Shown here: in pieces, positions 4,833 through 28,500 of the stretch | Layout: each line of letters opens with the position of its first letter | How positions within the stretch are numbered: position 1 is the stretch's first letter | Assembly: GCA_902729315.2 (NCBI GenBank) | Contig: LR746272.1 | Coordinates: 8,148,827 to 8,212,826 of the forward strand | Direction: 5' to 3' | From: Spirodela intermedia | Taxonomy: Eukaryota > Streptophyta > Magnoliopsida > Alismatales > Araceae | DNA: 64,000 nt | The notes under the pieces: generated by a model | What the model saw: only the letters and a program-made list of their open reading frames with translations | Databases searched by the model: none | Told to the model about the DNA's origin: nothing | Program-made: the position numbers and the translations under genes

Positions 4833-7073
4833 ATGGAATCCTCCGTGCCTTCGCCGGAGGACTCTGTCGGTGGCCGAGCCCTAGAGGAACCTACAAGAAA
4901 CCCTGCCCCACCATCCGCCGGCGTCGGGAGCCATGTAAAGGAGTCTAGGGTTTCCGGTCCCTCCGACGTGGTTCCCGAGGAAACTCTCGGCGGCGCTGCC
5001 GAGAACGGGGAGAGACCTGGTCCGGAGTTGCAGTCCCGCTCACACTATTCCGCGGAGGTTATCCACGAGGTAGAGTTGAGTTTGCGTCGGGGCAAGTCGG
5101 AGATGGTGGAAGCGGAGGGAGGTCCGACGAACGGCAAGATTGAGGACGACGGTGCACCGAAGAAAGGCGATGGAGGTGAAGGGGAGCTTCTTCTCGGTGT
5201 GGGACTTACAGATAACCAGTTCTTGGCGGGTGATTTCGTATGGGGGAAGATCAAACACCACCCCTGGTGGCCAGGCCAGGTGTATGACTCGTCCGATGCG
5301 TCGGAGTACGCTAAGAAGTTGCGCCGGAGGGACGAACAGTGTGTTCTGGTGGCATATTTCGGTGACAGGACGTTCGCCTGGTGTAAGCCGTCTCAGCTGA
5401 GGCTTTTCAGTGAGGGCTTCGAGGAGATGGCGCATCAGAGCATCTCCAAGAACTTCCTCGGCGCCCTGAAGGAAGCATTGGACGAGATCCAGGGGTCCTT
5501 AGAATCGGAGATCCTTGGCAACAGCCTCTCTGCTCGTCATGTTGTGAATGCCGGAATTAGGGAACGGGTGACTGGTCCAGAAGGTCGTGTGAAATGGCTG
5601 AGTATCGTCGATAAGATGCCTGCGGAGATGCTCGAGCGCCTTCACGAAGTAGCTTGCGATGTTTCCTGTGCGGATTTGCTGGAGATAACGGCGATCAAAT
5701 CTTGGTTTTCGGCCCTCGCTCGTTTGATGGGTTGGCGTATGGAGCATCCGGTGGAGCTTGAAGACGAGAAGGTTGTACATCGGGAGAGGGCTAATGTAAA
5801 TGGTGGTCCTCCGCTGGGAGTGTCGGCCATGGAATCTAGTGAAGAAGTGGAGCCAGGAAGACCTGCCGGGGGAGGCGGCGACGCTACCAAAAGGCGGGGT
5901 AGGGGGGGGAAGTTGTCTCATCGGAAGAAAGTGAGGAGTATGGCTGAGCTCATCGCCGAGACAGACATGGATGTGATCAAGTTGGAAGACGGCATTGACC
6001 GGGAGGAGAAGCCTGCTATCGTGAAAAAACTGGATTCCTTGGGCCGGCAACAGAGAAAGAAGAGCCAGGCGAAGTCTTCTGATTCTGAGAATGTCGACGT
6101 AGAGCGTGAAGAAGGCTCGGGTTCGGGCAGAAGGGAACGCAAGAGGAGCAGATATCTTTCACCTCCCTACACAACAATGAGGGGGCGGGCCCACCATAGT
6201 TCAGTCTTCCTGAAAGACGGAGAGGTAGATCATCCGAAGGAAGATATTGAGGCTTCTGAAACCGGGGACTCCGAAACTAGGATGGAGAATTCACACCCGA
6301 TTTTCTCGAAATGCAGTACTGAAGTCGCCCCGGATGATAAGATGGTTTCCACATTTGAAGGTGGCGGTGGTGCATCTGCTGAGGATATGCTGTTTGAACT
6401 CTGGTGTGCTGCGCTTGATTCTACGTGCGTGAAAGGTGATCTTTCTTCTTCGAGGTTCAGGATGTTCTTTGATAGATTCAGGGGATACTCCTACGCCAGT
6501 GTTTCAGATTATGGTGAGAGTGGCATAGAAGAGTTTAGATCTGAGCCGGACGATGGAAGGTGCAACTTCTATCTGGACGGTGAATCTGAGCCGAATGTAG
6601 ACTTTGAAGCTCCATATCGTTCTCCAGCCTCCTCTGGTTGTAAATCTACTCCCGAACGGAGGAAGAAACCCCTGTCCTGTGATACAGACGACAGCGGTGT
6701 TTCTAAATCCGAGGAGAAATCGATATCCGTTGCGCAGGGGACCTCCGGCTCTGAAAAAGTGATTATGCAGCCGAAGAGGAATGAGGAGGATGAGACTAAT
6801 GGGGACGACGAGGCGGCAATTCAACTGACATTAGGCAGCGGCCCGACAGTCTCCCCTACTGGTCAGAAGCCTCCCCTCCAGTTCATCAAGAAGAGCCTCG
6901 AGGGCATGATATCGGCTCTCCGGTCGTCTTTTCCCCTTCCAGGGAAGGCTACTAGGGACCCGTCCGACGGATTGGAGCCGGCGGCGAGGGAGAACCTGGT
7001 CTGCGAGATGAACGGCTTGCTGAAGAAGGTCGACGAGTTGATGGCGGGATCCACCGCCTCTGGCCCCGCTTGA
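4833..7073 (+). CDS. PWWP-domain nuclear protein (single exon)
   Basis: An uninterrupted frame encodes 746 residues from ATG 4833 (context agctaATGG) to TGA 7071-7073. The frame is open further upstream but has no earlier ATG near the leader. The PWWP domain spans about residues 130-200 and carries HPWWPGQVYD (143-152) after FVWGKIKH, which is an intact aromatic-cage-type core. PWWP domains bind DNA and methylated histone lysines. The rest is acidic and low-complexity with basic nuclear-localisation-like runs (KRRGRGGK, RKKVRS), and near residue 440 the motif KRSRYLSPPYT known from plant PWWP proteins of the PDP type. The C-terminus (about 665-740) looks helical. The gene lies 1.3 kb upstream of ATM in the same orientation, and Arabidopsis ATM carries an N-terminal PWWP domain, so this is probably the unfused counterpart. 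No intron is evident. Confidence 0.9.
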   Translation: MESSVPSPEDSVGGRALEEPTRNPAPPSAGVGSHVKESRVSGPSDVVPEETLGGAAENGERPGPELQSRSHYSAEVIHEVELSLRRGKSEMVEAEGGPTNGKIEDDGAPKKGDGGEGELLLGVGLTDNQFLAGDFVWGKIKHHPWWPGQVYDSSDASEYAKKLRRRDEQCVLVAYFGDRTFAWCKPSQLRLFSEGFEEMAHQSISKNFLGALKEALDEIQGSLESEILGNSLSARHVVNAGIRERVTGPEGRVKWLSIVDKMPAEMLERLHEVACDVSCADLLEITAIKSWFSALARLMGWRMEHPVELEDEKVVHRERANVNGGPPLGVSAMESSEEVEPGRPAGGGGDATKRRGRGGKLSHRKKVRSMAELIAETDMDVIKLEDGIDREEKPAIVKKLDSLGRQQRKKSQAKSSDSENVDVEREEGSGSGRRERKRSRYLSPPYTTMRGRAHHSSVFLKDGEVDHPKEDIEASETGDSETRMENSHPIFSKCSTEVAPDDKMVSTFEGGGGASAEDMLFELWCAALDSTCVKGDLSSSRFRMFFDRFRGYSYASVSDYGESGIEEFRSEPDDGRCNFYLDGESEPNVDFEAPYRSPASSGCKSTPERRKKPLSCDTDDSGVSKSEEKSISVAQGTSGSEKVIMQPKRNEEDETNGDDEAAIQLTLGSGPTVSPTGQKPPLQFIKKSLEGMISALRSSFPLPGKATRDPSDGLEPAARENLVCEMNGLLKKVDELMAGSTASGPA

Positions 7074-7810
7074 GCTGTCCTTGGTGCCTCTGCCTTGTTG
7101 TGGATAGATGCTCTGATCCAGAGTCCCCTGGTTCCTCCTCACCCACTTGTTTGTAATGCCGGCTTTAGATACTGGTTCAAATGTGCTGCACGTCCTATCT
7201 CCCGTGTGGATACGAGCCTGGGCGCTCTGATCTTGCTAGCTAACGCTGTGTTGGCGATGGCGTAGAGAGAGGCCCTGGAGGAAAATCGAAGAAGCCAACT
7301 AGAATGATTAGGAGTTAATGCCATCTATAAATGTGCTTCTGTTGGAAAAAAACCAGACCTCGTACTTGAAAGTCGGAAGTATTACAAGACAGAGGACAAG
7401 ATTTTGTGGGAGACGCGAGTGTTTTGACTCGTACTAAAACAAAATCAAAAGATTACTAAATTGTAGACCATGTGACAAGAAAACTAATCCAGGAAAAAAA
7501 GACACCTGTGAATCTACCTGTTTATCATATTTGACGAAGATTGAAGAGGGGAAGAGCAAGCTGCAACAATAGGTTTTTATTTACTTATTAATTTTATCAT
7601 CATGCCGAATGCGAAAAAGTTCGATGCACTTTGACCGCTGAAGTCTTAACCTGCTTACTCATATGCGTACACGCTCCACGTACGCACGCAGAACATTACA
7701 AATTATGAAGAGAACAATATTATTTAAGATGAAAAGGCGCTTTTATGCTAACATCCGTATGCTCTCGTAGGGTTCACCTTCCTTTGTTTCCTTCAAAAGT
7801 TGGGAAGAAG

Positions 7811-7849
<39 letters not shown>

Positions 7850-8141
7850 GCGTCTGCATTCCTGTAACCTATGAGTTATTTATTGGTCTAGACTTGTCAT
7901 CACATGTAAGAGGGTGCTGTACATTGTGAATATTCGCCATACATTTTTTACGGAGGTGAGGACTAGTGTTGGGGCGAGTTTGGGAAACCCCACGGATCAA
8001 ATCGATCGCAGGTAATTCGTCAAGACGACACGTAGACTTGATTCCGAGGGGGGCTATTTTTTCGCGTTTTGCACGTGTGAAAGAATCCGACTCGTGTGAG
8101 GTGGCAGTGCCCACCGCGAAGTCCCGCCTCACCGTAGACTG
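7074..8141. other. spacer between PWWP gene and ATM
   Basis: This stretch holds the PWWP 3' UTR and ATM upstream sequence. I see no conserved coding exon and no clear AATAAA polyadenylation signal. It contains a long GA microsatellite (7814-7846) and a G-box CACGTG at 8072-8077. The short distance, with no intervening gene, is compatible with occasional read-through from the PWWP gene into ATM. Confidence 0.6.
7814..7846 (+). repeat. (GA)n microsatellite upstream of ATM
   Basis: About 16 uninterrupted GA units lie roughly 525 bp upstream of the ATM start codon. GA tracts are bound by plant BPC/GAGA-binding proteins. It mirrors the CT tract in front of the PWWP gene. Confidence 0.85.
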
Positions 8142-8224
8142 TATAAATTCCCTGTACTCTCACTCTCTGACGCTATTTCTTCGGCTGCCGAGACCGTTTT
8201 CCGCGTACGAGGGCCGTTTCCCGC
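8072..8224 (+). promoter_or_regulatory. candidate ATM core promoter: G-box, TATA box, E2F site
   Basis: Visible in order are CACGTG at 8072-8077 (G-box), TATAAAT at 8142-8148, and TTTCCCGC at 8217-8224, which matches the E2F consensus TTTSSCGC exactly. With the TATA box at this position, transcription would start near 8170-8180, leaving a leader of about 190 nt and placing the E2F site just downstream of the start. E2F sites are typical of S-phase and DNA-repair genes. Promoter activity itself is inferred. Confidence 0.5.
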
Positions 8225-8370
8225 TCGTTTGTGTGACCTCCACCTCCTAGGGGAAACCTCTGCTCTCCCTTCTTCCCTTCTTTTACGCTTTCTCGATCTA
8301 GTTGCACGGGAAGGGGGCGCACCGAGGCTGGAGGCGCCTTGTCCCAGATCCTCGGCAGCGGAGAGGAAAC

Positions 8371-10562
8371 ATGGCGACATCGAGGGACGTGCAGGAGATC
8401 GTATCCAGGCTCTCCTCAAACAAGGCCAAAATACGTGAGGTAAAGCCGAAGAATGTATACTGCGGTCTTCATCGCCAGTCATGCTGATCATGTTTCATCA
8501 ATCGATCATTGTCCGCAGGAAGGAGCGAAGCTGCTTAACAGCTGGTTGGTAGGAGAGAGGTCCTTCAGTTTCTGCAGGTTGCTCGGCCAGAATACCTCCC
8601 GGATGAGACCGGATGATGTTCCTCACGGTGAGATCCATTTCATGACCCAATTATCGTGGTAGGGTAGGATCGTCTGAGACAGTTTCACTGCAACATATTC
8701 AACTATCTTATACTGCTGGTCTTCTTTGTGGCAGCTGAAACGTGGCCATATCTCGTCACTCTCCTAACGAAGTGCATTGCTTTGGAGAAAAATGCGAGTA
8801 AGAAGAGTCTGCCTAAGCTGATATGGGCAAAGATGCTTCGAATCGTCGTTCAGCATGCCGAGGATCCCAAATGTTCAGGTTGTTTGTTCACTAGCTCACG
8901 CTATAAGCCACACATCTCGGTTGGATCATCGGATGGATAAACAGGACGCGTAGGTTAATGAAGTAGGATTCTGCACAGTCGGTTCTTATATGAATAAAAA
9001 ATATCTTAAAATGGAATAGAAATGGTCTAATTAAGGAAGTGACTATTCATCCGCTTCATTGAACTAAGTTTTTAATTGATAACTCTTCCATCCCCTGAAG
9101 TCTATCAGGGAAAATTACAACATCACCTGATACTATAAAAGTACCTACACTTGTAATATCACTTGAAATTAATAGTGGTTATGCATCTGCTCACTGACAG
9201 GAAATACGGTGGTATACATCTTTTTTCAGGAAAGACATTGCATCTTCATTCTGTTATCAAGCTTCTTTTTAATCATACATGGGACATCATTAATGATGTT
9301 CCAAGCTTCCAACCAGAATATGGAATAATTCTCCGACATCTTCTATCTGTGAAGGAGTATCGCTATCAGATGAGAAAGCGAGTTTATAGCGGTAAGTTTT
9401 TAAATTACGATGCTGTTGCCATGAATCAATAATCAGTGATACATTTTCTGTACGTACCCCCATAAATTTATTTTCCTCGAATTGATTATCGTCGTCCATT
9501 GAAAAACAGGTCTAGTGCTCCTGTACATGAAGAAGATAGGAGCGCTGTTAATGGGGGAGAGTAAAATCCATTCGAGCACTAAAGAGGAAGCTTTCCGGTG
9601 CATTTTGACCCTCCATGCACTTCTAGAAAATCCACCGGGTGATTTTCCAGACAATATCAGGGCAGATGCTGTTAAGGGTTTTGTTGAAATTCTTTCGCAA
9701 ATAAGGTAGATTCTCTGCAATGCTTGATTTTCAAAAACTTGATTTGGTAACATACTAGAGCAAGACGTCCTCTGACCGTTTCCTCTCTTGAAACATTGTC
9801 AGGGAGGAGGGAAAGATTTCACGTAAACTCATGGCATGTGTCAATACATTCTTGCTCAAAGATGGCCCAAATTTAGGAAGCCAAGCTTTGGAAATTCACT
9901 CTTCCATTCATGATTTCATCTTCCGTTATTGGCTCCTTACCCACGATCGAGGGCTAAAGGTTCCCCATATTGATCAGACCATCTTTTATCTTACTTCGCA
10001 TAAAAGCTTCTCACATGAGTCCTTTTGTTGTAATTATAGAGTTCATTCATTCTTTACGCTAAGATCCAGTTAAAGCTAATCAGGAAAGGAGAAAGTGGAC
10101 TTCTCATAGAACAACTTCTTGACGTCATTGGGAAGGAATTGGATCTTTGTGGTGTTAGTGGTGGCCTGTCCTGGTGCGTCAAGAGTTTTCTGGCAGATGT
10201 TGAGGCATACAGCTATATAATAGTGGCATGTGGTTTCTGCTAATGTTATGTCTTTCAGGGGTGAGTCCACTAGAGATGACAAGGTAGGGTCGACAAATTC
10301 ACAACAAAGCTTGATGGAGCTGTCTGCCATCGTATTTTATCAGGTATTGGATTCGGAATATCTTAAAATGCCATTTTCCACGAAAGTGACATTCGTTGAG
10401 GTCTTCAAGATAGGATACTTGTATACTGCGACTATGAAATAGTTTTTTTGTCATCCAGGCCTGTATGAACAGTTTAAAGGTATCAGGTAATGATAAACGA
10501 CTGAAGAAACCGGATGCTATTGACCGTTTAAGAGATGGACTAATGAAGGGGAAATGGCTATG
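8371..10562 (+). CDS. ATM: ATM exons 1-9 (residues 1-386): TAN motif and start of HEAT solenoid
   Basis: Exons are 8371-8439, 8519-8627, 8735-8878, 9230-9391, 9510-9705, 9803-9959, 10040-10173, 10259-10343 and 10459-10562. ATG 8371 (gaaacATGG) is the first Met of the conserved TAN motif, which spans the exon 1/2 junction. The frame upstream of this ATG is open back to a stop at 8299-8301, so a longer N-terminus is possible only through upstream splicing. Typical plant ATM blocks seen are [20 protein letters not shown] in exon 6 and [13 protein letters not shown] in exon 9. The exons are compact, with introns mostly under 350 nt, unlike the rest of the gene. Confidence 0.92.
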
Positions 10563-13500
10563 GTGAGAATGGCTCTAGTTCATCAGTTTTTCTGCACTTG
10601 TATAAAAGATGAAGAGTCTCTAGTACTTGTTTCCCTTCTCACTGTTAATTGTTTATGGTCAGCTTCTTCATTGACTTTGGCTGAATCAGGGCTTTGAAGG
10701 GTGATTAGGCTGTTTTTTGGGGATGCATGAAGTTTTCTAGACGTCATTGACTGTTTTAGTGTTTGCCCCTTGTCTTTGGATGGTTGGTGTTCAACATAAA
10801 AATCCTGCTTTGTACGATTTGTTGAGTCGGTCATTCTTGGAATTACTTTTTTTCTGGGATTGCTTTTTTGAGTTTCTGATCGTTGAAGATATGAGAGTCC
10901 ACTGGATCATATGGTTTAAATTTTCCTAACATGAAGCGTTTTCTTATAAATGGTGTGTATGCCTGCATTATATATATCTATATATATATAGATTCAGTCA
11001 CACAAAAGTTAGTCGAACTATGACTTGATTTTTTTTCACATTTTGTTACATGATATTAAGTTTGCTGACCTTCTTGATATTATATCTTATAGGATTCCCT
11101 TTGGAATCCTCTGAGAAAACTCCCTCATTCACCAAGTCGGAAAGAGAACATTGAAAAGCAAGCAATGCATTTTACTGGTTGCACTGCATTCTTCTATAAT
11201 TTGAACCAGTTCTGATTTCTCATGTCTCTTTATCGATTCAGAATGAGATTGCTAATCTAGAAGGTCAAAATTAGTGCTCGTTTACATCTGCCGTTTAATA
11301 ATCCTAAGTGAAGGAGCAAGTAGAATAGAAATTACAAGTTTAACTTGATAACTTTTATTGATTCCTAATTTGAGACAATTTGAATTATTTCATTATTAAT
11401 GAAGAAGGGTCCTGACACAAGTGCTTTCCATAAAATTCACTTTCTCTCGTAAACATTGTCTTCTTTAAAGATAGTTATCATCTATTTCTAGGATGCGACC
11501 AGCATGAAAGCCATGTTCTTCTTAGTGCCCACTTTTCATTGATAGTCAATAATGATATCCAATTATTTCATTGTCATCTGAATCCTTTGGAGTCCATGTG
11601 TTGTGGTTACTTACCATTGTTTTTCACCCATGATGTGCACTTTGGAAATCTAATTCCACGGATGCTTTCATACAACAAGAAAGCAACAATACCGGTATGC
11701 AGGAGCACCCAAGAAAACGCAGCTTTGGGTTTTTTTGGGGGATGGTGTGTGGTCGCTGGAATCACTCCTATTGTAGAAACAGCAGCCAAAAACTACAAGA
11801 TTGTATAAAATATAAATGGAGACCACTAAAACTTCTCTTCTCATCTGACAAGGTTGTTGCGGAAAGTTATGAGAAATAAGCTAGAACGAAGTGTTTTCTC
11901 CTATCCTTGTTATTTTTTTCAGGTTCCATTGACTATCATCTTCCTCTATTCCTCTTGATCGGTTGGACACAAACAGTTAATTTATGCGCTAAAATTGTAA
12001 TTTTTTCCCCCCCTGTACATGCCCCAGAGAACAGATGATTAAAGAACTTTCACTAGTCACCATCAGTGAGTGTTGGGCAAATATCCTGCCCATTTTGGTA
12101 CCAATTTAACGATCAACCGTATCAAGAATAATCTCAATAGGACATTCATTATCACAAATATTTTGACCATATTTCTGTGTTGTGTTTTCAGGAGTGGTGC
12201 ATTTTGTTTTCTTATTCGCAACTATGGCTTCTGCATTGAAGAATATCTTCTAACTCACTTATTCAAAGGGTTGTGTGAAAGTTTTGAGAGGTTTGTAATG
12301 CTATATTTATGTCTTACAAGTTTTATGCTTAATAAATGATGGTTAGAACGGACATTAGATAAATTGACTGATTTGTACCAACCTTTTGCCCTTCCATCGG
12401 TGGTTACAGGGTTAGGAAACAGATAGAATTCAATGGTGCCTTTGCATTTGAAGCATTTAAAGCATTTGTAGGAAATTACTGTTGAGTTTTATTTGACAAT
12501 AAATATTTCAGCAATTAGTGATGTGGAAATAGTTGGATCTATTTATTTGTAGAAAACTTCGCAACAAGATCTCTATAAATTTTATTCCCACTTGACATGA
12601 TTGTAAGTAATTTATTATTCCTAGACAGCCAAATTGTGTAGCCAAAACATCAGAAGATGGTAGAATATTTTCGTTTAGCTCCTTTGATATTTTCACTTTT
12701 TTCGTCCAGACGCTTCCATGGTTTGGTTTTCTGTGGTTTAATGAATGGAGTTTAGGCTATTTCTGCCACCAAATTGAGTCATAGAAATATACACCTTTTT
12801 TTCCCCCATTTTGATGCCCAAAATGTGCCACCTTCCCACCTTTTTGGACATGGAAAGCGAGACTTCCTGCCTATGAAGTGGATGCAGATATGTTTCCTTC
12901 TTAATGGATAGTGTTTCATTATGACGAAGTGCTGTTATAATTAAATATCAATGGCTACTTGGAGCTTGCTTTCTATGATCCATAAAATCTGGATATTTCT
13001 GTTCGTTTATCTTGCGAGAAATGCATTTCACCGTATTGAATGTATTTCTGTGTTGGGACACTAACAGACTAGTATCTGTGCAGGATTTTGAGCGATTCAT
13101 ATGGCACACATTCATACGACGGGATTCTTTGGATCTTGCGGTCTGTTACTTGATGTTTTTTGTTATCACTACTTATAATTGTACCTTTAGTTTGGTGGTC
13201 TTCATTGGTAAAATACTTAATGAAAAATTCCAACATTTTGAAATCTAGTTTATTGGGTATAGTTTGCATTTCATGTTGATTGGTAGCAATTTCGTTCAAC
13301 TCTGTCTGTTCTATCAATTTTCATATAATGGCTTTGTTTTGTCTAATCTTTTTGTCTAGGAGCTTGCAGGAGCTCTGTTTTGTGCTTTCACATCCCCGGT
13401 TGATGAAAAGCTCCTCTCCAGCTGTAGATGAGGTAATGAATTGTTTTTTTATATCCTTTTATATCTTTTCCGAAGCCTAGATAAATGTACTCCTAAGTTA

Positions 13501-16500
13501 TTCTTTGATAGTTCTTTTGAATGCTATTTTGAAAAATAATGAAACTTTGTCTGTGGATAGAAATTTTGGTTTGATTAATTTTCTATGTTAGCTGGTTTTT
13601 GAAGAAAGGAAAAGCAGAGTGATGATTCACTTTTCTAATTCCTAAAACATTTATGCATGGAATGATGGAGGGAATTTTTCTGATGTTAGTAAGTGGCCAT
13701 GTAGAGTTCGAAAGTATAGGAAACTGACAATGGGATTCTAGATGTCCACAAGCATCTTGCTGTGTATCTTTAGGTGGATTCCTTTGACCCACATGATCGA
13801 TCCAGATTTAAGTCCATACAGAAGGATCATTCATTAATCCTGGGGAAGAAAGTTTTTGATGATCTGTGGTTTATGGAGTTTCTCAATGTATCCGGTTATG
13901 GTGGTATTTTCTCTCTTCAACATTCTTCAGTAAATCAGGTAAATCAGCCTTTCCTTTTTGTCAAGAAGCGTTCACACCATTTTTTAATGTTGAGAAAGAA
14001 AACAGAGAGAATAGGAGGCAAAACTTTGTCACGGAGGACAGAGGGAGGAACGGCAGAAACTGCCTCACTCATTTATTCACCTTTGATGTCCCTTAAATGG
14101 GGAACCCTACATACATATTCTCATAATACCCTTAGTCATTTTTAATATTACACTTAGACCTTCTAACAATTAAGCGCAGAGAAATCCTTGTTGGCTTAGT
14201 GAAATCTGCAGAGCTGTTAATGCTATTATAAACATGTAGAGTATTGGCTCTGTCTTTAAGAAAATTGTGTTAAAATTTTATTTGTAGACTAGGCAAGGAT
14301 TCTAAAGATGGTGCATGTACATGCAGACTGGGATTAGATTGTCTACCCAGGTAGATGTCATCTATATGGAAGATGATATTACCTGCCTTCTCTAGGGTTT
14401 ATGAGAAGAGGGGAATAATGGATTTCTCAGGGAAAGTTCTCTCCATCGTTTTGGAACAAGTTTGTGTTCTTTTAGCTTGTTATCATGCGTTTCATTTTAT
14501 TTTGACATCAAGGTTTTCGGTCTGAGACTTGTAATCTCCAACTTATGTAAATTGAGAAGGCATATCTAGATGATTTTTCTTGGACATGTTCATAATGACA
14601 TCTCCATAAAGCGTGGACATCCTGGAATTGACATTGGTCATGTGGAGCGGAGTAAGTAGTTTAACTTTCTGTAATTTTGGTGTGTTAACTAACATAGCAG
14701 ACGCTATCTTATAATAGATTGTAGCCGTCGTACAGAAGTTTTCTTAGAGTATAGTGATAATATGATCGTTCATACGTTTCTTTCTTTTCAAATTTAATGG
14801 CTTTGGCAACATTCACTTTCAAACAACAAAATATCTTTTTTTATGGTCGTAGAATTTTCCTACGGTTGATTTTTTTTGAGTGGTAATTTTGGGTTAAAAT
14901 TGGCCTTTTAACATGACCAGCAGCAACCTTATTTCATGATAAACTTTTTTCTCTTTTGTGGATAGCTCGAGGAGGATGCTTATCTCCCATCATCGGAATC
15001 TTATGCTATTTTGTAGTATGCATTTGGATCCTTCTTGCTAGGTTGATTTTTCCTTTTTCTTTTTGAGGTGTTCCAGGTTAGACAGGGTTGGCATACAGTA
15101 TGGAGCTCTTTAATGCATGGACTTCCAACATTCAGCAATGTGCCTCAAGTTGTATGTTCTCCTGTTTTCTTGTAAATATTCATTGAAAACTGTTTTAGTT
15201 CTTGACTTCTTGCCATAGCACTCGATTAGTTGCTGGTTTTCTTATCCAGGTGCACTGTTGTCCAAGATATCCCAGAAGCCAGTGCTTCTGGTTTCTACTC
15301 CCACCGGAACTGATGATCTTTTTCTGGCTTCTTTGTCACGTTCCATTGCATGTGAAAATCATGTTGGAATGATTTTTTTGGAAGCGAACTAATAATGCTA
15401 TCATGCATAAATGGGCTTCTCGACTTAATGGAAATTGGTTTTAAGTTAGATTCTTTTACTACACACAAGCATTTTTCAGTTTGTGTTTTAGGAAGATGAA
15501 CAGGTTGTAATTTTAATTGGGAATTGCCATTATCTTACCGTCACTTGATTTTTCAGAGGTGATTGAGCTGCTGTCTGAGCAGTCTTGCTTGTCATTACTA
15601 AATTCGTCTACCCATCGTATTTGTTGACTTCATGCATTCTTGGGCTATGTGACCATGATCTTTTTATTTGTAAAATTATCTCTATTATATTTCAGTCTGC
15701 TTTTTGATCATTCCTCCAGACTGCTGTCTGAGCAGTCTGGTAGATTTGGCATAGATAGGCAAGAAGTATCTTTATCTTTGCCTTGGGTTTTTGTTTGCTG
15801 TCACCTTGAACGTTTACCGTGAGACTATGCATTTGATGCCCATAGCTTTGTAGAGCAGGGAAAAGAAAATGAAAGTTTCTCAACCTTTTGTCTAAGATCA
15901 ATTATGTGGGGTACAGCACAAACAAACTTAATCACCTTGTTCCTTCCACGTTGTAAAGATGTCGTCGTGATATTGTCATAAATGAGTACACTGTTTGATT
16001 GCCTAAAATGAAAATTTCCAGAAAACAACCAGAAAGGATCATTCCCAGGACGTCGAGATAGTTGTTTCCATTTTCTCTTTCTTTTGCTTCTCTTCGTCTT
16101 CCTTCTCTCCCTTGTAATTTTTTTTTTCCAATGTGTTATTCATAAAACGAGAAAAGACTTACACATGTATACAATGAGCTCTTGAAAAGAGAGAACCCCC
16201 CTATACATGACCAAGAAGCATATGCTTGGGGATTGCGTGCAACTCTACGATCAGAAGTTTAAAAATGGAAGACTCGTTTCTCCTCCCATCACGAAATGTC
16301 CTAGCCCACTCTTGTACATCAATGAAGATATTTGCCATTTTTTATCCACTGTCTCAGCGGGTTGACAATGTGGTTATTATCACATCAAAATGGCTTAAAG
16401 GTTCTCATGTGAAGTGAGCCACACACTACGGGATTTCCCTTGGTGTTTCAATTCCAATAACACTTTCTCCTTGTCACATTCAGGTCAGTAGGAAGGTTGC

Positions 16501-19500
16501 TCTTAATTTAACCTAGCATGATTCTCGTTCTGATTTTGGATCCCACAGGTTTTCAGTGTTGTAAGGAGGTTAAATGAATCTTATAATCACCTCAGAAAGT
16601 AACTATATTTTTGAAGTGACGAAATATGATAATTTTTCTGTCATGGACTTTATTCTTTGTATTTTTTTTAAATTTTTTTTAGGTACGATGATAGATTTTT
16701 TAGACACCATATGGTTTTTATATGCAGGCTGATGCTGCTTTGATCCTTCTTGGCAGCATTGTTTCAGAGGTCAAGTTCAAGTTTCTAGTTCTTGTGTCAT
16801 GCACTTTTCTGTCGCTCTTGTTACAAATATCAAACAAATTTGAAGTGTTCAGATATTGTTGCTTTCCATTATTTCTCACAGGATCTCGTTAGTATGCCGA
16901 TTGTGCCTCAAGAGGTGTGGGAAGTTCAGCTATTTAAGCATACTCCATCTGTGTATGGCCCACTGAAATTTCAGACGACTCATTTTAGTGCCACTTTGTT
17001 TCTTTTAATTGATAGTTTTCCTCGTGTATTGGAGGCATTTTGTTTGTTGAATGGTGTATGCTCCTATTGGTGACTCCTGATTGATTTAATATATCTGGCA
17101 ACCATTTTAAGTTGCATGATTTGAATGTACAGTAATAGATTTCTTGGCAGTTTGTACTATTTTTTTTCAATATAACTTGTAACCATTTTAAGAGGCATGA
17201 TTTGAATGTGTAGTAATAAATCAATTGAGCCACAATTAAAATCAAGGGGAGCGAGTGGAGTGTGTCCAACTTTATTGCAGAAAAAGTTGTTTTTTTTTTT
17301 TGTAATAACAAAAATAGGACCATTCTTCCCCTCAAATGCAGGGTGACTTTTAGGCTTTGTCACTTTGACTGCGTAATTAGGTATATTGGCTTTAATACGA
17401 AAATTTATTGTGCCGTCCAATTTAAAATCGATTAGCTGAAGTGGGCTCATTTTTATAACTTAAAAATAATTAGTTTATCAAGTAAAAATGGGACCTTTTA
17501 AATTAAAGAATCATCTCACAAAACATCCTATTCTTGCATAGATAATATCCACTTTTCTGTCTATAACTGAGTTGGGTTGCTTTTGTAACGAGGTGGCCTG
17601 GATACCATCAATATGTGTCATGCTACTTCCTGTTTTACTATGGTCCAATAATCCGCCAACTTTCTCTAGTGGTAGACCGTGGGCCTGAGCAAAATATATG
17701 AGAAATGAAAATGGTTTTGGGTTGATCAAAATATGTAGACATCTTGATCAAATTTGTACTTATTGGTGACATCCATACACATTGGTGGCATCTGTACACA
17801 TCAGGCTTAAACAAGCTAAAATTTATCTAAGATTTTCAGAGAGAATTATTTGATCATTTACTTCACAGGATAGAACATTTTTTCAAAATTGTCTAAATGA
17901 AGAAAATTTGTCCAAATTGGTTGTTTTTGATCTGGGTACGTTCGCCTAAGCCAGCCAAGTTTATTTTTCGATTATTTGAGATGTGTAGAGTTTTTAAGTC
18001 TTAACTTAGATCGGCCAATCTGGATCTAGATAACCCAAGCTTGAGCGTATGAAATAAACGAACTTTTGACTTTTGGACAAATTTATTTTTTGGTTGTTAC
18101 TTTCAAGTAATAGATTCTTTTTTGCCACCATTTAAAATTCTCTTTTGGATGTGAGCGTATTAAATTTGAAAATAATGTACAAGTTTATTGAATTTGAGTT
18201 GATTTGAGTTCTTTCACATGACAGCAGTAATGTTTTTCGTAGTTCTGCTCGGCAATGTTCATTTTTTTTCTCTCAAGTATGCATTTATTCTCCTTTGTTT
18301 TTATTTTTTATTGTTGATCTGTTATGTGGAGGACGCACTGGTACTTGAATCATTTGACTGGCCATCTTGTTGGGCCATTCTAATATTCTGTATTCAGGCC
18401 CTAAAAATGGCAACAATTTGTAGTAGGTATGATTCAAGTAAAATCAGATATAATTCACTCGATTTGGTTAATTCAGATAAGCTGGGGATCATATGCTCAT
18501 CGTGAGTTATAATGATGTGAGTGAAAGAAGTAAACAAGATCGTAGACTATACATATGAAAGTATTGAAAAATTATCCTTGGGGCACTGATGTGAGCTCAT
18601 GACCGTTGGGCCCATTAAATGCAATGCTTGCCAAAAGAAGCAGCCATTGATGTATTCCAAGCAGTAAGAGGTGGAATAGATGAGTTATTATTGAGGCAGG
18701 CTATACGTTCCAGGGTTAAAATGATGCAGATGGCCCCTACCCTGGAATCTGCTCGCATTGTGTTGATGAAAATTCTTCAGTGAGGATCAAGGTATGATGG
18801 TTGTAAATTTTAGGGAATGTCGTCATATTGTCGGGATAATCACCCTCTGCAGCTCAGTAGTAAACCTGGCACACCCGAAAGTTATCAACGTGCTGATTGC
18901 CTGCATCGTTTGGAGATCTTGTAACATGGTAATACATTCGTAACAGTGTCCAGCTGAGTCAGGCACAGAAGCCAATTACTAGGTCCGAATGAGATTTAAT
19001 GGAGAACGAATGTGGTGATATGATGGAGAGTTAATGGCGGTATCATAGTGGAAGGGTTCGATATGTTGAGTTGGCTTACAGAGGTTTCATGAAGGAGGCT
19101 CATAAAGGTGGAAGACCCGGGCCGTAGGGAATGGTTACGGGTACCTGCTTGGGTTTCTGGGTTTAGAATGGTAGAAGGGAAGGGATGCTGGGTGGGGGCT
19201 ATGGATTATTATTACAAATTTTTGGGAGGTTAGGCTGTTGTGTGCGGCTCAAGGAGGCTACACATATGGATATCCTCTGAGGTTAGAAGGATGAAAGAGA
19301 TGGCTGCTGGGTGTGACTTAGGGAGGGTTTCTGGTGTTATAGGGAAGGGTTGGGCTTCTCAGTGTGATCTTCGGGAGGTTGTGGGCGAGAGAATTTCTGG
19401 GATCAGAAGGGGCTTCTGTTGTCAACCTGTCCAAAATTGAGTTGAAGTCAAGTGAACTTGGTCTATACCTGTCCTGAGTACGCTTCTCTACGCCAAGGAC

Positions 19501-22500
19501 TGCAGGCGATTCGAGTCCTTGGAGGGAAGAGTTATTATGAAATTACTACGTTCTGCCTAGAAACCAGACCTCCTTACAAATAGGTCATAAGGACAGTTGA
19601 CAATCCTGGTTTAAAACACAATTTCATTGGAATATGAACATAACTGTACTCACAACATAGGAAATCATTGAAAATTTCATCTTTTTGCTAACGTAAGCAC
19701 TGCTTGATATATGCTTTAGTTAATGCCTTTTTTGCCATCTGAGTTGAGTGAGTCACGTCTGAAATTCATATTATCAGTAAATTACTTAGGTAGTTGAGAT
19801 CATGAAACCTAGGCCCACGATGGGTTTAAATCCTCTGCTTTGTATGGATAGGACCATTGTTATAGGAAAGGCTTCTCATGAGTTCAAAGTAATGTTGTCT
19901 GTTTGTATGAAATTTGGGCGTCAACGTTCTTACCAGGATATTTTGGTTCGTATCAATGGTGGGTTATGTGCATAAATAGCCTTTTAGGATTGCATGCACA
20001 CATTTTCTTTCTTTTAAAACTTATAATGTCATTCTTCCATTTATCATTAATGTTGGTGTATTGATTATGCGTGTCATATTTTTTCTAGTACTCACTTGAG
20101 TTGTTTTTTTTTTTCTTTGTAACGGCATCCAGATGTGCTTTGTACTTCATTGCGTGCTATTTCTCAAAGAGTGGTGTTCAGGTGTGTATAACCTCCCTTC
20201 TGAACATGTCATCGTTGCATCCTTTGATTATTTATGTTACAATAATCTGTCATGCATCATTTGTATCCACTTGTATTTTAAATGCATTCATGTGTTTTTC
20301 ATTTGTGGTTGTATAATTTCTTGTAACCATTGCTGATGCGATCCTTTTTCTTTCTGATGTTTTGTTGTATAATGTTGAGCAAGTCCCTTTAATCACGGAT
20401 ACATACACTGAATTTTTAATTTTCTCATATTTATGTAGGGAAACCTTCATGATATTCTATATCTCAGGAAGTGTTTGCTCAAAGCATCAATGCAACTGGT
20501 TAATTCAAAGGTTCGCGTCTCAGACAGTGCATTAATTTTTAACCATATACGGTCATTGTCATCAATTTGTCCCATCAGGTTTCTGTTGGCCTTATCCAGT
20601 TGTCTTCTTTTTGTGATGTTTCTCTGTTCGTGATCGTCAATACATTTTAGTGGTTTTCTGTGGTATTTATGATAAAAAGACATCGGTTACATATCTGCAC
20701 TTGGGTGGGTCTCTGATGATTGTTTTACCTTCATTTGCTGTTGTGCCTGGTCCATTTCTTTGGTGGAACCGAGTAGGAGATGATGCTACCTTTTCTCTGC
20801 AGCCAACAAAATACAACTGATGAATGCTTGAATGCTTTTAGTTTCTCATATTACTTAAAAGAGTTTGTGTTGTAGCAAGTTATTCTACATCAATTACTGC
20901 ATCAATGGCCTCACAACTGAGCCAAGGCTACTTCTAACTATGGGTGTTTGAATTCACTGCTGATTTTTTTTTGGTTGAAATCAATTAATAATGAGGCGGA
21001 TGGAGACCTTATGTTCCAGTAACTAATGCAGCCATCTGTTCTTTTTTTATGATGACAAATTTGACTGTACTTTAATGAGAATCTTTCTGAATTCAAGCGT
21101 TTTCTCAAAGTCGTCATTTAATTAGCGTGGACCAAGAAATCATAAATTGAATCTGAACTTGTCCAGCCTGATCCCGATTCTATCACTTGATAGGGCCAGA
21201 TGGGGCAATTCTAACAAATCCTTGTAAAATTCCGGGAAAAAACATAAAGGAAAGGGTAGTGTTGGAAGATGAAAGGCAAACGAAGAAAGTGACATGCGGG
21301 AGAGATCTGGGAATATCAACTCATAAGATATAGACTTTGACTCGGTATCTGCAGCACTGTATAGCCTCAATAGCTGGACGTGGTAATGGGAGTTGGCACT
21401 GTAACAACAGGTGGTGCAACGTTGTGCCAATCATCTCTTACTTTGTTTCTTCTCTCTTGCATGTCCTTTTGATAACTCCGAGATCAAAGTAAGCAAGCTT
21501 TCACTCACTTAATCATCAGAGAACTTAAAATATCATGAAGAAATTGAAAGCTTATTCTACCATGGTATTAATGAATATAATACATCACAAAAGAATGCCC
21601 GTAGATTTCATTCAAGTTTTATTATCTCATAAATGACAGCTTTTTTCTGCAGAAACCGACGTTTTTCCCAGAAGGCTGACATGAATCGCTAAGTCTCAGT
21701 CCGTTTTTGTCGACTTGGATTCAATATGGCCAGTTTTCAAAACCATGTAATATAATGATTTTGTAAGGTGTAGACTGTGGTGTGTTCAAGTTATCAAAAA
21801 TAACAGGTCCAGTCGGACTGTCTTAGTGGCGACTTTGTGTATTCATTTTTGTGTAGATTGTGGCACATTTGATGGTGCGGCCTCCATCTTATTCACTTTT
21901 TTCCGTTTTATTTATTTACATTAATATTTGTGTCATTCCTTCTGTACAAAGTGGTGCCTTCCAGTTAAAAGGTTTGTTCTTGTTGAGGTACTTTTCTTAT
22001 CCGTATACCTTGTTCATGAATTATCTTCATCATTTTTTGTACAGGAATCTTTTTTCCTTAATAAGCAAATTGCTATGGTCTTGCCGGCTGCTATTTTTTC
22101 CCTTAGTGCTGGGTACTGTCCTTTCCTGCCCACATCCATGTGCCACATGCTCGTTGAAGAGTGGTCTAAGGTATTCTTTTGTCCGTTTGATTGTAAGTTT
22201 ACGATTGAGTTTCTGTCTAAGTTTAATGTTGGGGCCTTTGTTTAAATGTTGAATCAGAAAATCATGTTGTTTTTCGTTTGTTAAACTTGTGATATATTAA
22301 GGTGAAAGTATATTTTGTGTTTATCGCACTTTTCTGCAAAGATGATTTCGCAATTGTTTATGCATATTTACCTTGAAATCAGTTAATTTGTTCAATGAAA
22401 CCGTTTCAGTTTCAGGATCATAAGGAAATAGAAGGATTTCCGGAGTATTCTGTGGAAGTTCTTGCAAAAATCAACAATGAAACTGTTATTGAGGTGCTAC

Positions 22501-25500
22501 ATCAATCATTTGATTTTTTGTTGGCTTCATATTTATTGTGTTAATTTACAGATCTGTGTATGCTTTTGTTAGCTGCCAAAGCCAGAAAATTGCCAGAGTA
22601 TACGTCTTTCACGAGATTTAAGTGGGCAATTGATTCATGAAATGGGAGAGTACTTTCTTGCGATTACAGATTTCGATCAAGAAATGGAGAGGAAATCTTT
22701 ATCAGATATCTCCCTTTTTTGCTTGTTTTTATCTAATCTGATCTACAGTTTGAATTTGACTCGGTATGTCTCTTCTGTGTTTTTGGGTGAACCTATAATC
22801 TCTTTGTTTATTCTCCATACTAGTCTTCGTTTTATGTTTAATCAGTTTTCAACAATGTTTTGACAGTTTCATAATCGTTGTTACTGACCTCTTTGGACGC
22901 AACTTCTGATGAAATAAATAATTAAACCTGTGTTGGTGCGGCCTTACATCTGATTTATCTGTTTGATTGGTTATGTACTTGTCAATAACTGATAGTTGCT
23001 GTTTTTTAATAATGCAAGGCTTTGCTGATTTTGTTTTCTTCATGGAGCATGCATTATTTTTCCTGCAGATGAAGAAGAAAATCTTTGGTGGCACATGAAT
23101 TCCCCTGTTGCATTATTCTCTAGACTGCATACCAAAGTATAATTTTCTGTTGAAAGTAGATATTGCCAACATAGCCATTTCGTCATAGAAAAGAGCGAAA
23201 TTGCAAGGGTGTGCAGCATAAAATCTCAACCTTCTATGCATCATTTTGCTGGATCTACACCAACGAAGTATAGACCAAAGTAAAAAGTACAGACTCCCCA
23301 AAATTACGGACTCATCTCTGTACTGCTTACACTACGTGCATTCCACACTCTGATCTGATCAAATACCCAAGAAAGAATCGTAGTATCTGTCTTGCCCTCT
23401 CTTAAAATGAGTACTAATTAAATTGGTTATTTCTACGTTCAGGATTGAACCTGAGCATCTTCATGATTCTTTGGTGGCCTTCTAAGGAATCCTAATTTTA
23501 TTGTGCGGGCAATTATCTGATAAATACTAGATTATTTAGTTTTTATCTCTCGTGGATTCCATATAGTTGAGCACCGAACAATAAGCTCTATCATCTTATA
23601 CTATTGGATATCCTTCATCTAAAAAAAGAAACAGAATTAATCTGTTATAAGCTTTTAAAACGCGTTTTGCACTTTTTCCTAGCTCTGGAGAGGTATCTGG
23701 GGTGAATGGATGAGTTCTGGAGGTTGATTTCATTCTAGTTTATTAAAGCATCTTTAGCTGCCTGATAAAAATGTTGGTTAGGATGACTTGCCAAAATATG
23801 GATTGTAGGGTGAAGATTTAATTTCTTGAATTAATAATGTAATTACGAAGTTCTTTTAAATTTTGTGGTATGCACATTTTTGGTTTATGAGACCAGTTTC
23901 AATATGCTACTTTCTAGCTGTCTCTATGAGAATAAGTTGGGTCAGAGTCGCTTTTTAGCACTGTTCCTTTAAAGTACTATGTATACGCTTTATTTATTTT
24001 GCTTACCTTAATTCAGTTTTAGTCCGGATTTTGTGAAATATTGTGATGGACTTATATTTTTCATATTTTATGTCTCCTTTGGATTATTCTTTTCCAGTAG
24101 ATTTAATTTATTTAAATTGTGCAGGCTCAGGAATGAGAAATCATTACTATTCTCAAAGGTGCTGTCGTGTATCATTAGATTACTGCAGCTAATTATTTCC
24201 ACTGTTGAGGAAAAACACAAAGAACTTCACTTACGAGGCTCTTTGGGTGTTGCCTCTATCACAGAACTATCTGGATCTGCTTTGTCTTCTCTTTCTTGTC
24301 TTATTCAATGCCCACTGTTCTGTGTTCTTGGGGATGGAAGTGCAGTTCTTGGTGAATTTCATGAGAATATTCGTCAGTCAATTGAGAAGCTTCTGCTGGT
24401 TATAACGAATCTTCTTAAGGATTTCGCAACTTGTACGGCTGATGGTGATTTGAAGGGAGAAACCTCACAACATATTTGTTTAATTGCTGGCGACGGGATG
24501 AAAATTGTTGACATGGAATTAGATTTTGATGATGGCCCTAAAGATGTTGAGGATCTAGCGGTTAATGGGGATAGTGTTTCTGGTGTTTCCTTTTCTGTTC
24601 TGCAGTGGAAGTTGGATATGATTTCTTCTATTTCATCCTTCTTCACAGTTTTACCTGCTACCACGTGGGAAGTGATGCTTAATTTGTTGGAAAATGCATC
24701 TGATGCTAAGGTTGTTTATGCTTAGATATTTACTATATTGGTTTTCGGTTTTCATTTTTCCACTTTTGTGAGTGTTTTCTTTTATATTTTTAGGTTGCTG
24801 AATGTCTCATTTTTTATATCTGCAAGTGTTTTCCACTCTCCAAAGGGTCACTCTCTCCATTGGTAATGTAGAGGATCTATGTAATGCTATTTAGTGAATT
24901 CCTTTGAGGTTGCATGCCAGTTTTTGATTGATGTATATTGTTCCTTTTCTCTTAAGGTCATTTCGATGAACAAGATGATAGATTCAAGTGCAAGCCGTAG
25001 CATTTGCTTCGTTAACATCTTAACTGCTATTCATAGCTTACTGAGGTCAGTCTCCTCCAAGAACAGGAAAAACGATGGTCATCTTTGGCAGCCTAAGAGA
25101 CAGAATGTTTCAGAACAGGTAGCATGCTTGACAATATCAAGTTTGTTTCCTTATATCATTTTGAAAGCTTGTGCGTCATATGGTGTCAAGTATCTGCATT
25201 GGTACCAGTTTTACATACAGATTAGTGATCTTATCCTTGATAACTGTGCAGTTGTAATCTATTACTGTGGTAGTGATCTTAGAGAACATACATGGAAGTT
25301 CATTAGTAACTGCAGAATATAAAGTGAAAAAGACATAATTTTGCAATACAAAAGTGTTAAACATTTCACTACTGTAAAAATGTACAAACTTGATGAGGGG
25401 CTGAGTGATTGTTATCCTATAATTGTGTTATGGAAATCAGGATGGAATCAAGGGAATATTAGATGGGAATGTCATAATAGTAGAGGATAAAATATTTATG

Positions 25501-28500
25501 CTTCAGTTTTTTGTTTGCATATTTTAAGTATGACTGTTTTTCATTTTAAAAAATTAATATGCTAATATTTCAATAATAACTGTAGGCTCCAGTCAAAAGT
25601 TCAGCTGACTTCGAATTGCAGGACTTAGCCCTTCTTGGAGCCTTGGTACACAGAATTGGAGATACAGATGTTCTAGATTGGTCTGGCCGTGTTGAACTTA
25701 TTGAGTGCGTTTGTGGTTTCATTTTGCTTGACCCTTCTACTGGCCAGGTGATAAATTTTACAGGCCAAATTAATATTTCTAACGTCTATTTGATCTGGTT
25801 CTTTATTTTGTTGGTTGTACAAATTGTTGTGATTTCCTTCTCATAGGAAATGGTTCCTAGGCTACTGGCTTTGCTTCAAGATCCTGATTACAGAGTTAGG
25901 CTTTTCTTGGCAAGACGAATTGGAATCCTTTTCCAGACATGGGATGGGCATGAAGAATTGCTGCAAGATATATGGTATGCTCATTCTTTTTCTCGTATTT
26001 ATCAGCAACTGGTTTATTGATCAGCCAATATTATTTACGAGATACATTTCTTAATACATTTTCCAGGTGACCAGCATAAGTATTCGAACTCCTAGCTTCT
26101 TCAATCTTTAAATCTATACCTGTTAGTATGGATAAAGAATGTTGGGGTTGTCGCAGTTTGGTGGTTTTTATCTGTTCCATATAGTTTAACTTTTATGTCA
26201 AAGTTTATTAGTAATCTTGGTGCATTCTTCATTTGGTGGTTAATACTGTATTGATAAAACTGATTCATTCACACTTGAATATATATTTGAATATTTTCTA
26301 TGCTAAAAATGAAGAATGGAAGTTACGCAGAACAAGCTTTTTGCTATATTAGGCTTTCCTTCTATTTTTCCTTTCTTTCCTATTATTAGATGTATTTCCT
26401 TTTTCGTGTTTCTGTTATTAGACCTTTCCGTAACACTGGAAAGGTTTATTAGACGCCAATATAAATACTGGCGTACTGCCCTGAGAAGGGTTAAGTCAGT
26501 TTTTTCCAAATTCACAGGAGATCACTACTGTGCATACACATTGACCAGAAATTTCCCTCTTGTCAAGGAAACTTTTGTCTATTGTGGAAAGGAACCAAAG
26601 CCTATGTCATCCACATGCCAGCTTGTTAAATGGCAGTATTCCCAAAAACTGAAGGATATGATGCGCAACTTGGATTTATTGTGAAGTGAAACTTTTTATT
26701 GGTTTTGGAGGATACCTTGTGGTTACATTACAGCAAAGATAAATGGGAACAACATGTCACAATTCATCTGTATGATTGGGTAATAGCTGCCCAAAGATAG
26801 GACTGATAATTGCTAGTTGGTGTTAGAATGGTCCAACGTTCCCACATTTACGATTGATTAGCAGCTACTTTCTTAACTGTCATCTTGACTTCCAACCTCT
26901 ATTTACTGTACCGCTGACATGGCTGCTGAAAGTTGATTTAATCAAATGATGACCTGTTAGTCATGGACTCTCTAGGGAGAATGTAATTCCGTCCGAATCA
27001 ATTAACTCATGCCTTTCTTTGATGGATGATGAAATACTCGCCACCTGCAGCATTATCCATGTTCTCTACTTTTTAATTTCTCCTTTAGCTAAAGTTTGCT
27101 TTTGTTCAGGATACAGTAAGCTATCGTAGAGGCCTGTTTCTACGTAGGCCCGGGATTTGGCTTGCTCATTGACCAATGTCTTAAGGAACTCACCAATGAG
27201 TTGGTTTCCCGTTATGATAGCTTGTCGGTCTCATTGTATAGGTTCTACATGAAAGGGAAAAAAACTCTTTGAATCGTTGCATTGTTGCCACATGGTAATA
27301 AATTTTTTGGATTCATTTCTAACTTTGCTGGCGTTACACTTTTCACGATCCATGATGATATCTAGTCATCTGGCATGTTTTTGATATTCTCTGATTCGTA
27401 TCACATCCATAACCACTTTCAGATCTGATTCATGCAAAATCTGGAAAGAATGCCACTACAGTTGTCAGATAGCTGCTGAAGCTTAGTAAATCCGGAAGCA
27501 ACTAATATGAAATTTCAGTCTACAAGTATATGTGAATCTTGTCTGCGATAATCACAGTTTTTGTTCAATCTTTGGTTTCTGTGAACGATTCAAGGGTATT
27601 GGTGTGAAGGAGATGATGTTATGGTCATTATTGTTTGTTGGTTTTGTTTTAAAGGAAAATATGCATGCATTGGTGTCAGGTGTTAATGTCCACTGATCTG
27701 TCTCTTACATTTTTTTCTCTGGGTTAACTGTTGCTATCTTGAAGACCTTCAAAAAATTAAATAAGCACTTTCACTGATTAGCTTCTTGTTCTCAGTTCAA
27801 ATTTTGGTATCCTGTTAGTAATGGCTTCGAAAGATAAGCTTATTAAAGCTAGAGAGGTGTTGGCTGCTGGTTCTCAGTCTCCTATGCGCTTGGAAACAGC
27901 TCTCATAACTCTCGCCCACATTGCATTTCATAGTGACAAAGTGGAGTTGAAGGTAAATCAGTTTGGGTTCTCCGGTGTCATGTTCTCAAACAGCTTCTTT
28001 TTTATTGTTTTTTTGTATATTAAACGTCGCCAATAAATGGTTTTATAGGGACAGGTCGTACACCTAACTTTGTATGTTAGCTATCACTTTATTTTGATTT
28101 TGGCCATTATCTTAGTCTAAAGGTATGAATACGCAGATATTTGATAGAAAGCAACGGTTTGTATGTTTGATTATATAGGAGTTAAATGGTTAAATTCTCA
28201 TGTGCCATTTTTTTTTCCATGCAATATACTGCATCTGTTGCTGGGTTCCATCTTGTCAAGAGGAAAAATGACACAAACTAAACGCTTAGCTACGGGCACT
28301 GGTATCTATACCAGTGTCTACATGGACTACGTGGGCCGGATCGGCCCAAAAAGGCTAGACGGGCCAATCAGGTCCAGACGTAATGGAGTCCATAATCTAA
28401 CATATCTGATGATTTTATGTTCAGTTAATGGAAAAGATAAGTTGCCTATCTCAAGTCAGCCACGTGGCCATCATTATTATATTGATGTCTCAAGTTTTTC

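What the first reader, a model, noticed from the sequence alone, without database searches (positions are those of the whole stretch)
4833..8439. Unfused PWWP gene sits directly upstream of ATM in the same orientation
The sequence shows a complete 746-codon PWWP gene followed 1.3 kb later by the first ATM exon. From memory, Arabidopsis ATM is recorded as about 3856 residues with an N-terminal PWWP domain, about 800 residues longer than animal and most other plant ATM proteins. The extra length fits this 746-residue protein. The locus may preserve the ancestral two-gene state, or the two may be expressed as one unit in which ATM is coupled to chromatin reading.
Basis: partly seen in the sequence, partly recalled or inferred. 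Interest (0 to 1): 0.75.

Follow-up and report, generated by a model that had tools for sequence, protein, structure and literature searches.

The report
PWWP gene beside ATM in duckweed
In a duckweed, the gene for a chromatin-reader-like PWWP protein sits just upstream of the DNA-damage kinase gene ATM as a separate gene, which suggests where the PWWP part of Arabidopsis ATM may have come from, although the two genes are not on the same piece of chromosome in most plants that could be checked.

Summary
A single-exon 746-codon PWWP gene (4833-7073, +) is followed, 1,297 bp later and on the same strand, by the first ATM exon (8371-8439). The window is Spirodela intermedia or nearly so: 2,959 of 2,962 residues of that species' deposited ATM occur here in exact 6-mers. 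The PWWP gene is single-copy here apart from two distant paralogs and belongs to an angiosperm-wide orthologous group that is alike beyond the PWWP core. The two look like separate transcription units: different frames, 14-22 stops per frame between them, a candidate TATA box 229 bp before the ATM start, and a deposited ATM model that begins at its own ATG. Being unfused is the normal state: 120 of 120 listed ATM proteins lack PWWP, and a 2012 paper already calls the Arabidopsis PWWP-ATM combination lineage-specific. New here is the neighbour. Linkage is only partly shared: same contig in 3 of 16 comparable species (Magnolia, Tasmannia, Telopea), different contigs in 13, including all nine core eudicots. 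Best reading: an old linkage, often broken, that later supplied the PWWP part of Arabidopsis ATM. Direct alignment with Arabidopsis ATM could not be made; a joint expression unit is not supported.

The parts
4833..7073 (+). single-exon gene for a 746-residue PWWP-domain protein
   Evidence: open frame; PF00855 at residues 133-219; orthologs with similarity beyond the PWWP core; only two other, distant matches in the genome
5229..5489 (+). PWWP domain, residues 133-219; W145, W146, F176 invariant and H143 nearly invariant in the 43 aligned rows
6129..6170 (+). conserved basic motif RRERKRSRYLSPPY, residues 433-446
   Evidence: consensus of 43 rows; position
6876..7043 (+). two C-terminal helices of the model (residues 682-698 and 716-737); the RRM-like domain that precedes them in 36 of 43 rows is missing here
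7074..8370 (.). intergenic stretch, 1,297 bp, with stops in all three forward frames (15, 14, 22)
8142..8148 (+). TATAAAT, candidate TATA box of ATM, 229 bp before its ATG (a second TATAAAT lies at 7326)
   Evidence: pattern match only
8217..8224 (+). TTTCCCGC, E2F-like match before ATM
   Evidence: pattern match only; motif recalled
8371..8439 (+). ATM exon 1 with start codon
8519..8627 (+). ATM exon 2
8735..8878 (+). ATM exon 3
9230..9391 (+). ATM exon 4
8371..64000 (+). ATM gene inside the window, through FAT exons; kinase and FATC exons lie beyond the window, to about 69,818
   Evidence: tblastn with P0087 in the window and in the adjoining stretch L004; domains of P0087

Best explanation
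Two separate genes lie side by side in a duckweed: a chromatin-reader-like PWWP protein and the ATM kinase. Shown: both genes, their order, strand and spacing; the PWWP gene belongs to one angiosperm-wide orthologous group; unfused ATM is the rule among the proteins listed. Inferred: the neighbourhood is old (early angiosperms), was broken in many lineages (probably by loss of alternate copies after genome duplications and by rearrangement), and in the line to Arabidopsis the two neighbours became one reading frame, giving ATM its N-terminal PWWP. Also inferred: the PWWP protein binds methylated histone tails or DNA by its PWWP domain; in most orthologs an RRM-like domain adds a protein or RNA contact that the duckweed protein has lost.
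For: Gene anatomy. Tree of 60 database proteins plus the window: a 46-row group (SH-aLRT 99, quick method) that broadly follows plant phylogeny, with the window beside Colocasia and two unnamed proteins. PWWP and ATM rows on a contig of identical length in Telopea, Tasmannia and Magnolia. Only 10 PWWP matches in the 136.5 Mb genome, a lower bound, so chance placement of one directly upstream of ATM on the same strand is roughly 1 in several thousand (my estimate; gene number about 20,000 recalled). A paper describes ATM with an N-terminal PWWP in two Arabidopsis species and in no other land plant it examined (PMC3457860).
Against: PWWP and ATM rows lie on different contigs in 13 of 16 comparable species, including 9 of 9 core eudicots, the group to which Arabidopsis belongs. 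With chromosome numbers from memory, 3 of 16 is not significant overall (expected 1.19, P 0.11); only the 7 species outside core eudicots, a subset picked after seeing the data, give P 0.01. Same contig is not adjacency. Arabidopsis ATM was not retrieved, so the orthology of its PWWP is untested, and the search meant to find fused proteins found none.
Confidence: 0.5

Rival explanations
1. The adjacency arose by local rearrangement in the duckweed or arum line and has nothing to do with the Arabidopsis fusion, which took its PWWP from another gene.
For: 13 of 16 comparable species have the two genes on different contigs, all nine core eudicots among them. The three shared contigs are not significant over all 16 (P 0.11).
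Against: Same contig in two magnoliids and one member of the Proteales; few PWWP matches in the genome, so hitting the slot upstream of ATM by chance is unlikely.
Confidence: 0.27
2. The two genes are expressed as one unit (read-through or shared transcript), or their products act together, so that ATM is coupled to chromatin reading without fusion.
For: Close spacing, same strand; the Arabidopsis fusion would be a hint of a functional tie (inference).
Against: Candidate TATA box before ATM, stops in all frames, different frames. In other, unnamed plants nine ATM clusters from the lgn source have proteins of 3,008-3,043 aa on contigs of only 9,378-9,750 nt, the size of an unfused ATM mRNA. Different contigs in 13 of 16 species.
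Confidence: 0.1
3. The Arabidopsis PWWP-ATM protein is an annotation merge of two neighbouring genes rather than a real fusion.
For: Arabis alpina, of the same family by recall, has a deposited ATM of 2,995 aa without PWWP (P0199). No fused protein turned up in a search made for it. The neighbour arrangement seen here is what would be merged.
Against: The combination was found in both A. thaliana and A. lyrata (PMC3457860), and a group worked with an N-terminal 300-residue ATM piece (PMC5338318, one passage). The search was limited to proteins of about 1,218-3,874 aa and did not return Arabidopsis ATM in any form.
Confidence: 0.13

Closest known systems
Arabidopsis thaliana and A. lyrata PWWP-ATM (PMC3457860, clade 1a)
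   Same: A PWWP domain related to plant solo-PWWP proteins placed upstream of ATM
   Different: Here the two are separate genes 1.3 kb apart; there they are described as one protein
Plant solo-PWWP proteins (clade 1 of PMC3457860; some orthologs are named PWWP domain-containing protein 3 or 6)
   Same: One PWWP and no other Pfam domain
   Different: This member lacks the RRM-like domain present in 36 of 43 aligned rows; its placement in clade 1 itself was not tested
Plant ATM of about 3,000 residues (e.g. Spirodela intermedia P0087)
   Same: The downstream gene encodes this protein
   Different: Nothing seen; it has no PWWP

Membership tests
PWWP-domain protein family (PF00855) | PWWP domain above the curated cut-off | tested here: met
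   70.8 bits against 25.6, residues 133-219
Angiosperm PWWP orthologous group | groups with the family in a tree and is alike beyond the core | tested here: met
   46-row group, SH-aLRT 99, on about 275 residues around the PWWP core; main match runs past residue 370 in 6 of 6 pairwise tests, with a second significant stretch in 5 of 6
Angiosperm PWWP orthologous group | RRM-like domain before the C-terminal helices | tested here: not met
   present in 36 of 43 aligned rows; absent in the window protein, P0001, P0003 and four others; modelled in Colocasia mostly above pLDDT 90; Pfam RRM_1 only below its cut-off in Elaeis and not in six others scanned
ATM (downstream gene) | TAN region, TPR_ATM, FAT, PI3/PI4 kinase, FATC | tested here: met
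   hmmscan of P0087, which this locus encodes; TAN matches below its cut-off; kinase and FATC lie outside the window
PWWP-ATM fusion protein | PWWP and ATM in one reading frame | tested here: not met
   separate frames, stops between; splicing not excluded without RNA data
PWWP-ATM fusion protein | this PWWP is orthologous to that of Arabidopsis ATM | not tested
   Arabidopsis ATM not seen among the listed rows
Conserved gene pair | adjacent in distant plants | tested here: inconclusive
   same contig in 3 of 16 species, different in 13; order along the contig unknown

The most novel reading that the evidence does not exclude
PWWP and ATM have been neighbours since early angiosperms because their products work together: the PWWP protein reads chromatin for ATM in trans, and Arabidopsis hard-wired that tie by fusing the two genes.
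Probability: 0.15. Interest if true: 0.7.

Novelty: new member of a known kind. Interest (0 to 1): 0.38.

Why it matters
PMC3457860 calls the Arabidopsis PWWP-ATM a lineage-specific gain and, in the parts read, names no source. A free-standing neighbour of a related family offers a simple source (fusion of neighbours) and names a candidate partner of ATM to test in plants that keep the genes apart. It also warns that several unfused PWWP proteins in databases bear the name ATM (for example P0005, P0049, P0071, P0209), probably by transfer from the Arabidopsis fusion.

Tried and rejected
Direct test against Arabidopsis ATM: one search was designed to fetch fused proteins (query region: 200 residues of the Tarenaya PWWP protein); it scored 1,020 candidates of about 1,218-3,874 aa and returned 43, none with ATM domains in the Pfam column. 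Arabidopsis ATM itself did not appear, perhaps because its cluster representative is longer than the limit, so the miss says little.

Database names as evidence: rejected, because both this group and the longer PWWP paralog group carry the name ATM.

Structure model of the window protein: mean pLDDT 47.5, PWWP part only about 45-60; no histone-pocket claim rests on it. The Colocasia model is also poor overall (48.4), but its RRM-like part is mostly above 90; Foldseek's listed matches are mostly RRM or U1A entries, the best at E 0.011, none at or below 0.001.

ATM copy number in this genome: not answered.

Bacterial promoter and terminator scan is not suited to a plant and was ignored. Pfam scan of eight other open frames, most on the minus strand: no family.

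Papers: searches on plant PDP proteins, on the original Arabidopsis ATM gene paper (not in the listing) and on duckweed ATM gave nothing used. PMC1855986, PMC6747262 and PMC8604271 were seen in passages only and did not bear on the question.
Full report
What is there. On the + strand, 4833-7073 encodes 746 residues without introns. The stop-free frame of 784 codons far exceeds the longest stop-free stretch in 200 mononucleotide shuffles of the region, 265 codons. Pfam finds one domain, PWWP, at residues 133-219. After 1,297 bp comes ATM: exons 8371-8439, 8519-8627, 8735-8878, 9230-9391 and on. Matches to the ATM of Spirodela intermedia run through the window to 63,104 and end about 5.8 kb beyond the window. 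Of the 2,962 residues of that protein (P0087), 2,959 lie in exact 6-mers of the forward translations of window plus L004. The window contig is 13,401,826 bases, the contig of P0087 13,403,603. The genome has 136.5 Mb in 32 contigs.

The PWWP protein. A search returned 86 proteins at E up to 1e-10, among the 7,988 candidates that were scored; all those with an organism name are flowering plants. The nearest is an unnamed protein at 82% (P0001), then Colocasia at 44% over 90% of the length. No row named Spirodela intermedia appears, so the deposited proteins of that species seem to lack this gene or give it another length. In its own genome it has one identical hit, itself, and two distant ones at 36% and 42%; the PWWP profile gives ten matches, a lower bound. 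The distant one on C1 resembles another, longer PWWP group best. For a tree I used about 275 residues around the PWWP core of 60 of the 128 database proteins, plus the window; two more that I had chosen, P0079 and P0217, were left out because my motif search did not find their core. The window protein falls in a 46-row group (SH-aLRT 99, quick method) that runs from Amborella through magnoliids and monocots to eudicots, broadly like the plants themselves; the outgroup was not one side of a branch, so the root is unsure, and 21 of 58 inner branches are open. Similarity is not just the generic core: matches run past residue 370 in 6 of 6 pairs tried, with a second significant stretch in 5 of 6, and a basic motif ending in YLSPPY and a C-terminal pair of helices are shared. 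Between these, 36 of 43 aligned rows carry an RRM-like domain, modelled mostly above pLDDT 90 in Colocasia and matching RRMs in the PDB only weakly by E-value (best 0.011; the model is long and mostly disordered). Pfam sees it only below its cut-off, in one of seven proteins scanned. The window protein, P0001 and P0003 lack it, as do four others: a loss in the duckweed line, if the two unnamed relatives are duckweeds.

One unit or two? The PWWP frame and ATM frame differ, and the three frames between them hold 15, 14 and 22 stops. A TATAAAT lies 229 bp and an E2F-like match 154 bp before the ATM start; another TATAAAT lies at 7326. These are pattern matches. The deposited ATM model starts at the same ATG. 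In other, unnamed plants nine ATM clusters of the lgn source hold proteins of 3,008-3,043 aa on contigs of 9,378-9,750 nt; a gene with dozens of introns cannot fit there, so these are most likely assembled mRNAs with no room for a PWWP part. A spliced read-through product in Spirodela is not excluded without RNA data.

Fused or not elsewhere. Of 350 ATM-like proteins only the best 120 were listed; 120 of 120 have no PWWP domain in the Pfam column or by motif, and the longest has 3,367 aa. They include Arabis alpina, 2,995 aa. The other 230 were not seen. A search aimed at fused proteins returned none, but did not return Arabidopsis ATM either, so that test is void. The literature is clear on the principle: PMC3457860 (abstract, outline, passages, sections 8 and 9 read) finds PWWP in the ATM of two Arabidopsis species, says that no other land plant examined has it, and calls it co-opted in the Arabidopsis lineage. 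PMC5338318 (one passage) gives Arabidopsis ATM 3,845 residues with an N-terminal PWWP. In four searches (listings, plus the passages named) I saw no mention of a free PWWP gene beside ATM; the library lacks most subscription papers.

Is the neighbourhood shared? No plant genome other than this one could be read, so I compared the longest-contig lengths printed with PWWP rows and ATM rows of the same species. Sixteen species were comparable. Equal, hence same contig: Telopea, Tasmannia, Magnolia sinica. Different: Macadamia, Asparagus, Phalaenopsis, Dendrobium, Pterospermum, Reevesia, Quillaja, Lathyrus, Malus, Bidens, Tagetes, Linum perenne, Phaseolus coccineus. Fifteen of these have a PWWP row inside the 46-row group; Phaseolus was assigned by BLAST. 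Dropped before the count: Gossypium (rows from two species, chromosomes D04 and D09, so also against), Ensete (two assemblies), Elaeis (no contig for ATM), and Malania, Arctium and Typha angustifolia (PWWP rows of the other group; their contigs differ from those of ATM). Against chance with chromosome numbers from memory, 3 of 16 is weak (expected 1.19, P 0.11); among the seven species outside core eudicots it is 3 of 7 (expected 0.50, P 0.01), but that subset was chosen afterwards. The Phalaenopsis and Bidens rows are scaffolds, and some Malus and Linum clusters stand for several contigs of which only the longest is shown, so these are weak negatives. Same contig is linkage, not adjacency.

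Reading. The simplest account that covers all of this is an old linkage, kept tight in this duckweed and at least as shared chromosome in two magnoliids and one Proteales, lost in many lineages, and turned into a fusion in the Arabidopsis line. Its weak point is that no core eudicot examined keeps the linkage, although Arabidopsis is one; either the copy beside ATM was kept only in some lines after genome triplication, or the Arabidopsis PWWP has another source. What the PWWP protein does is inferred: a chromatin-binding module, with the tryptophan and phenylalanine of the usual aromatic pocket kept and a histidine at the third place (pocket positions recalled from solved PWWP domains).

Verdict. 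A correct and useful observation with a partly supported story. The fusion is already known; the free neighbour is a new and testable piece.

Noticed in passing
window 2642 to <1, - strand: Head-to-head with the PWWP gene lies a DUF220 (PF02713) gene; four exons were spliced by hand and hit the family at E 2.9e-17; it continues beyond the window start.
   Followed up: partly
window 6846-6860 (after residue 671): The RRM-like domain found in 36 of 43 aligned rows is missing at this point in the window protein, P0001 and P0003: a likely loss in the duckweed line.
   Followed up: yes
database rows P0005, P0008, P0049, P0071, P0209, P0229, P0231: Unfused PWWP proteins are named as ATM or as a non-specific serine/threonine kinase, although the Pfam column shows only PWWP; probably names carried over from the Arabidopsis fusion.
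   Followed up: no
P0215 (Magnolia), P0211 (Asimina): In these two magnoliids the PWWP lies at about residue 1105 and 930 after a long N-terminal part without any Pfam domain at E up to 0.01.
   Followed up: no
versus window 4833-7073: No Spirodela intermedia row among 86 hits although its ATM is deposited; the PWWP gene may be missing or mis-sized in that annotation.
   Followed up: no
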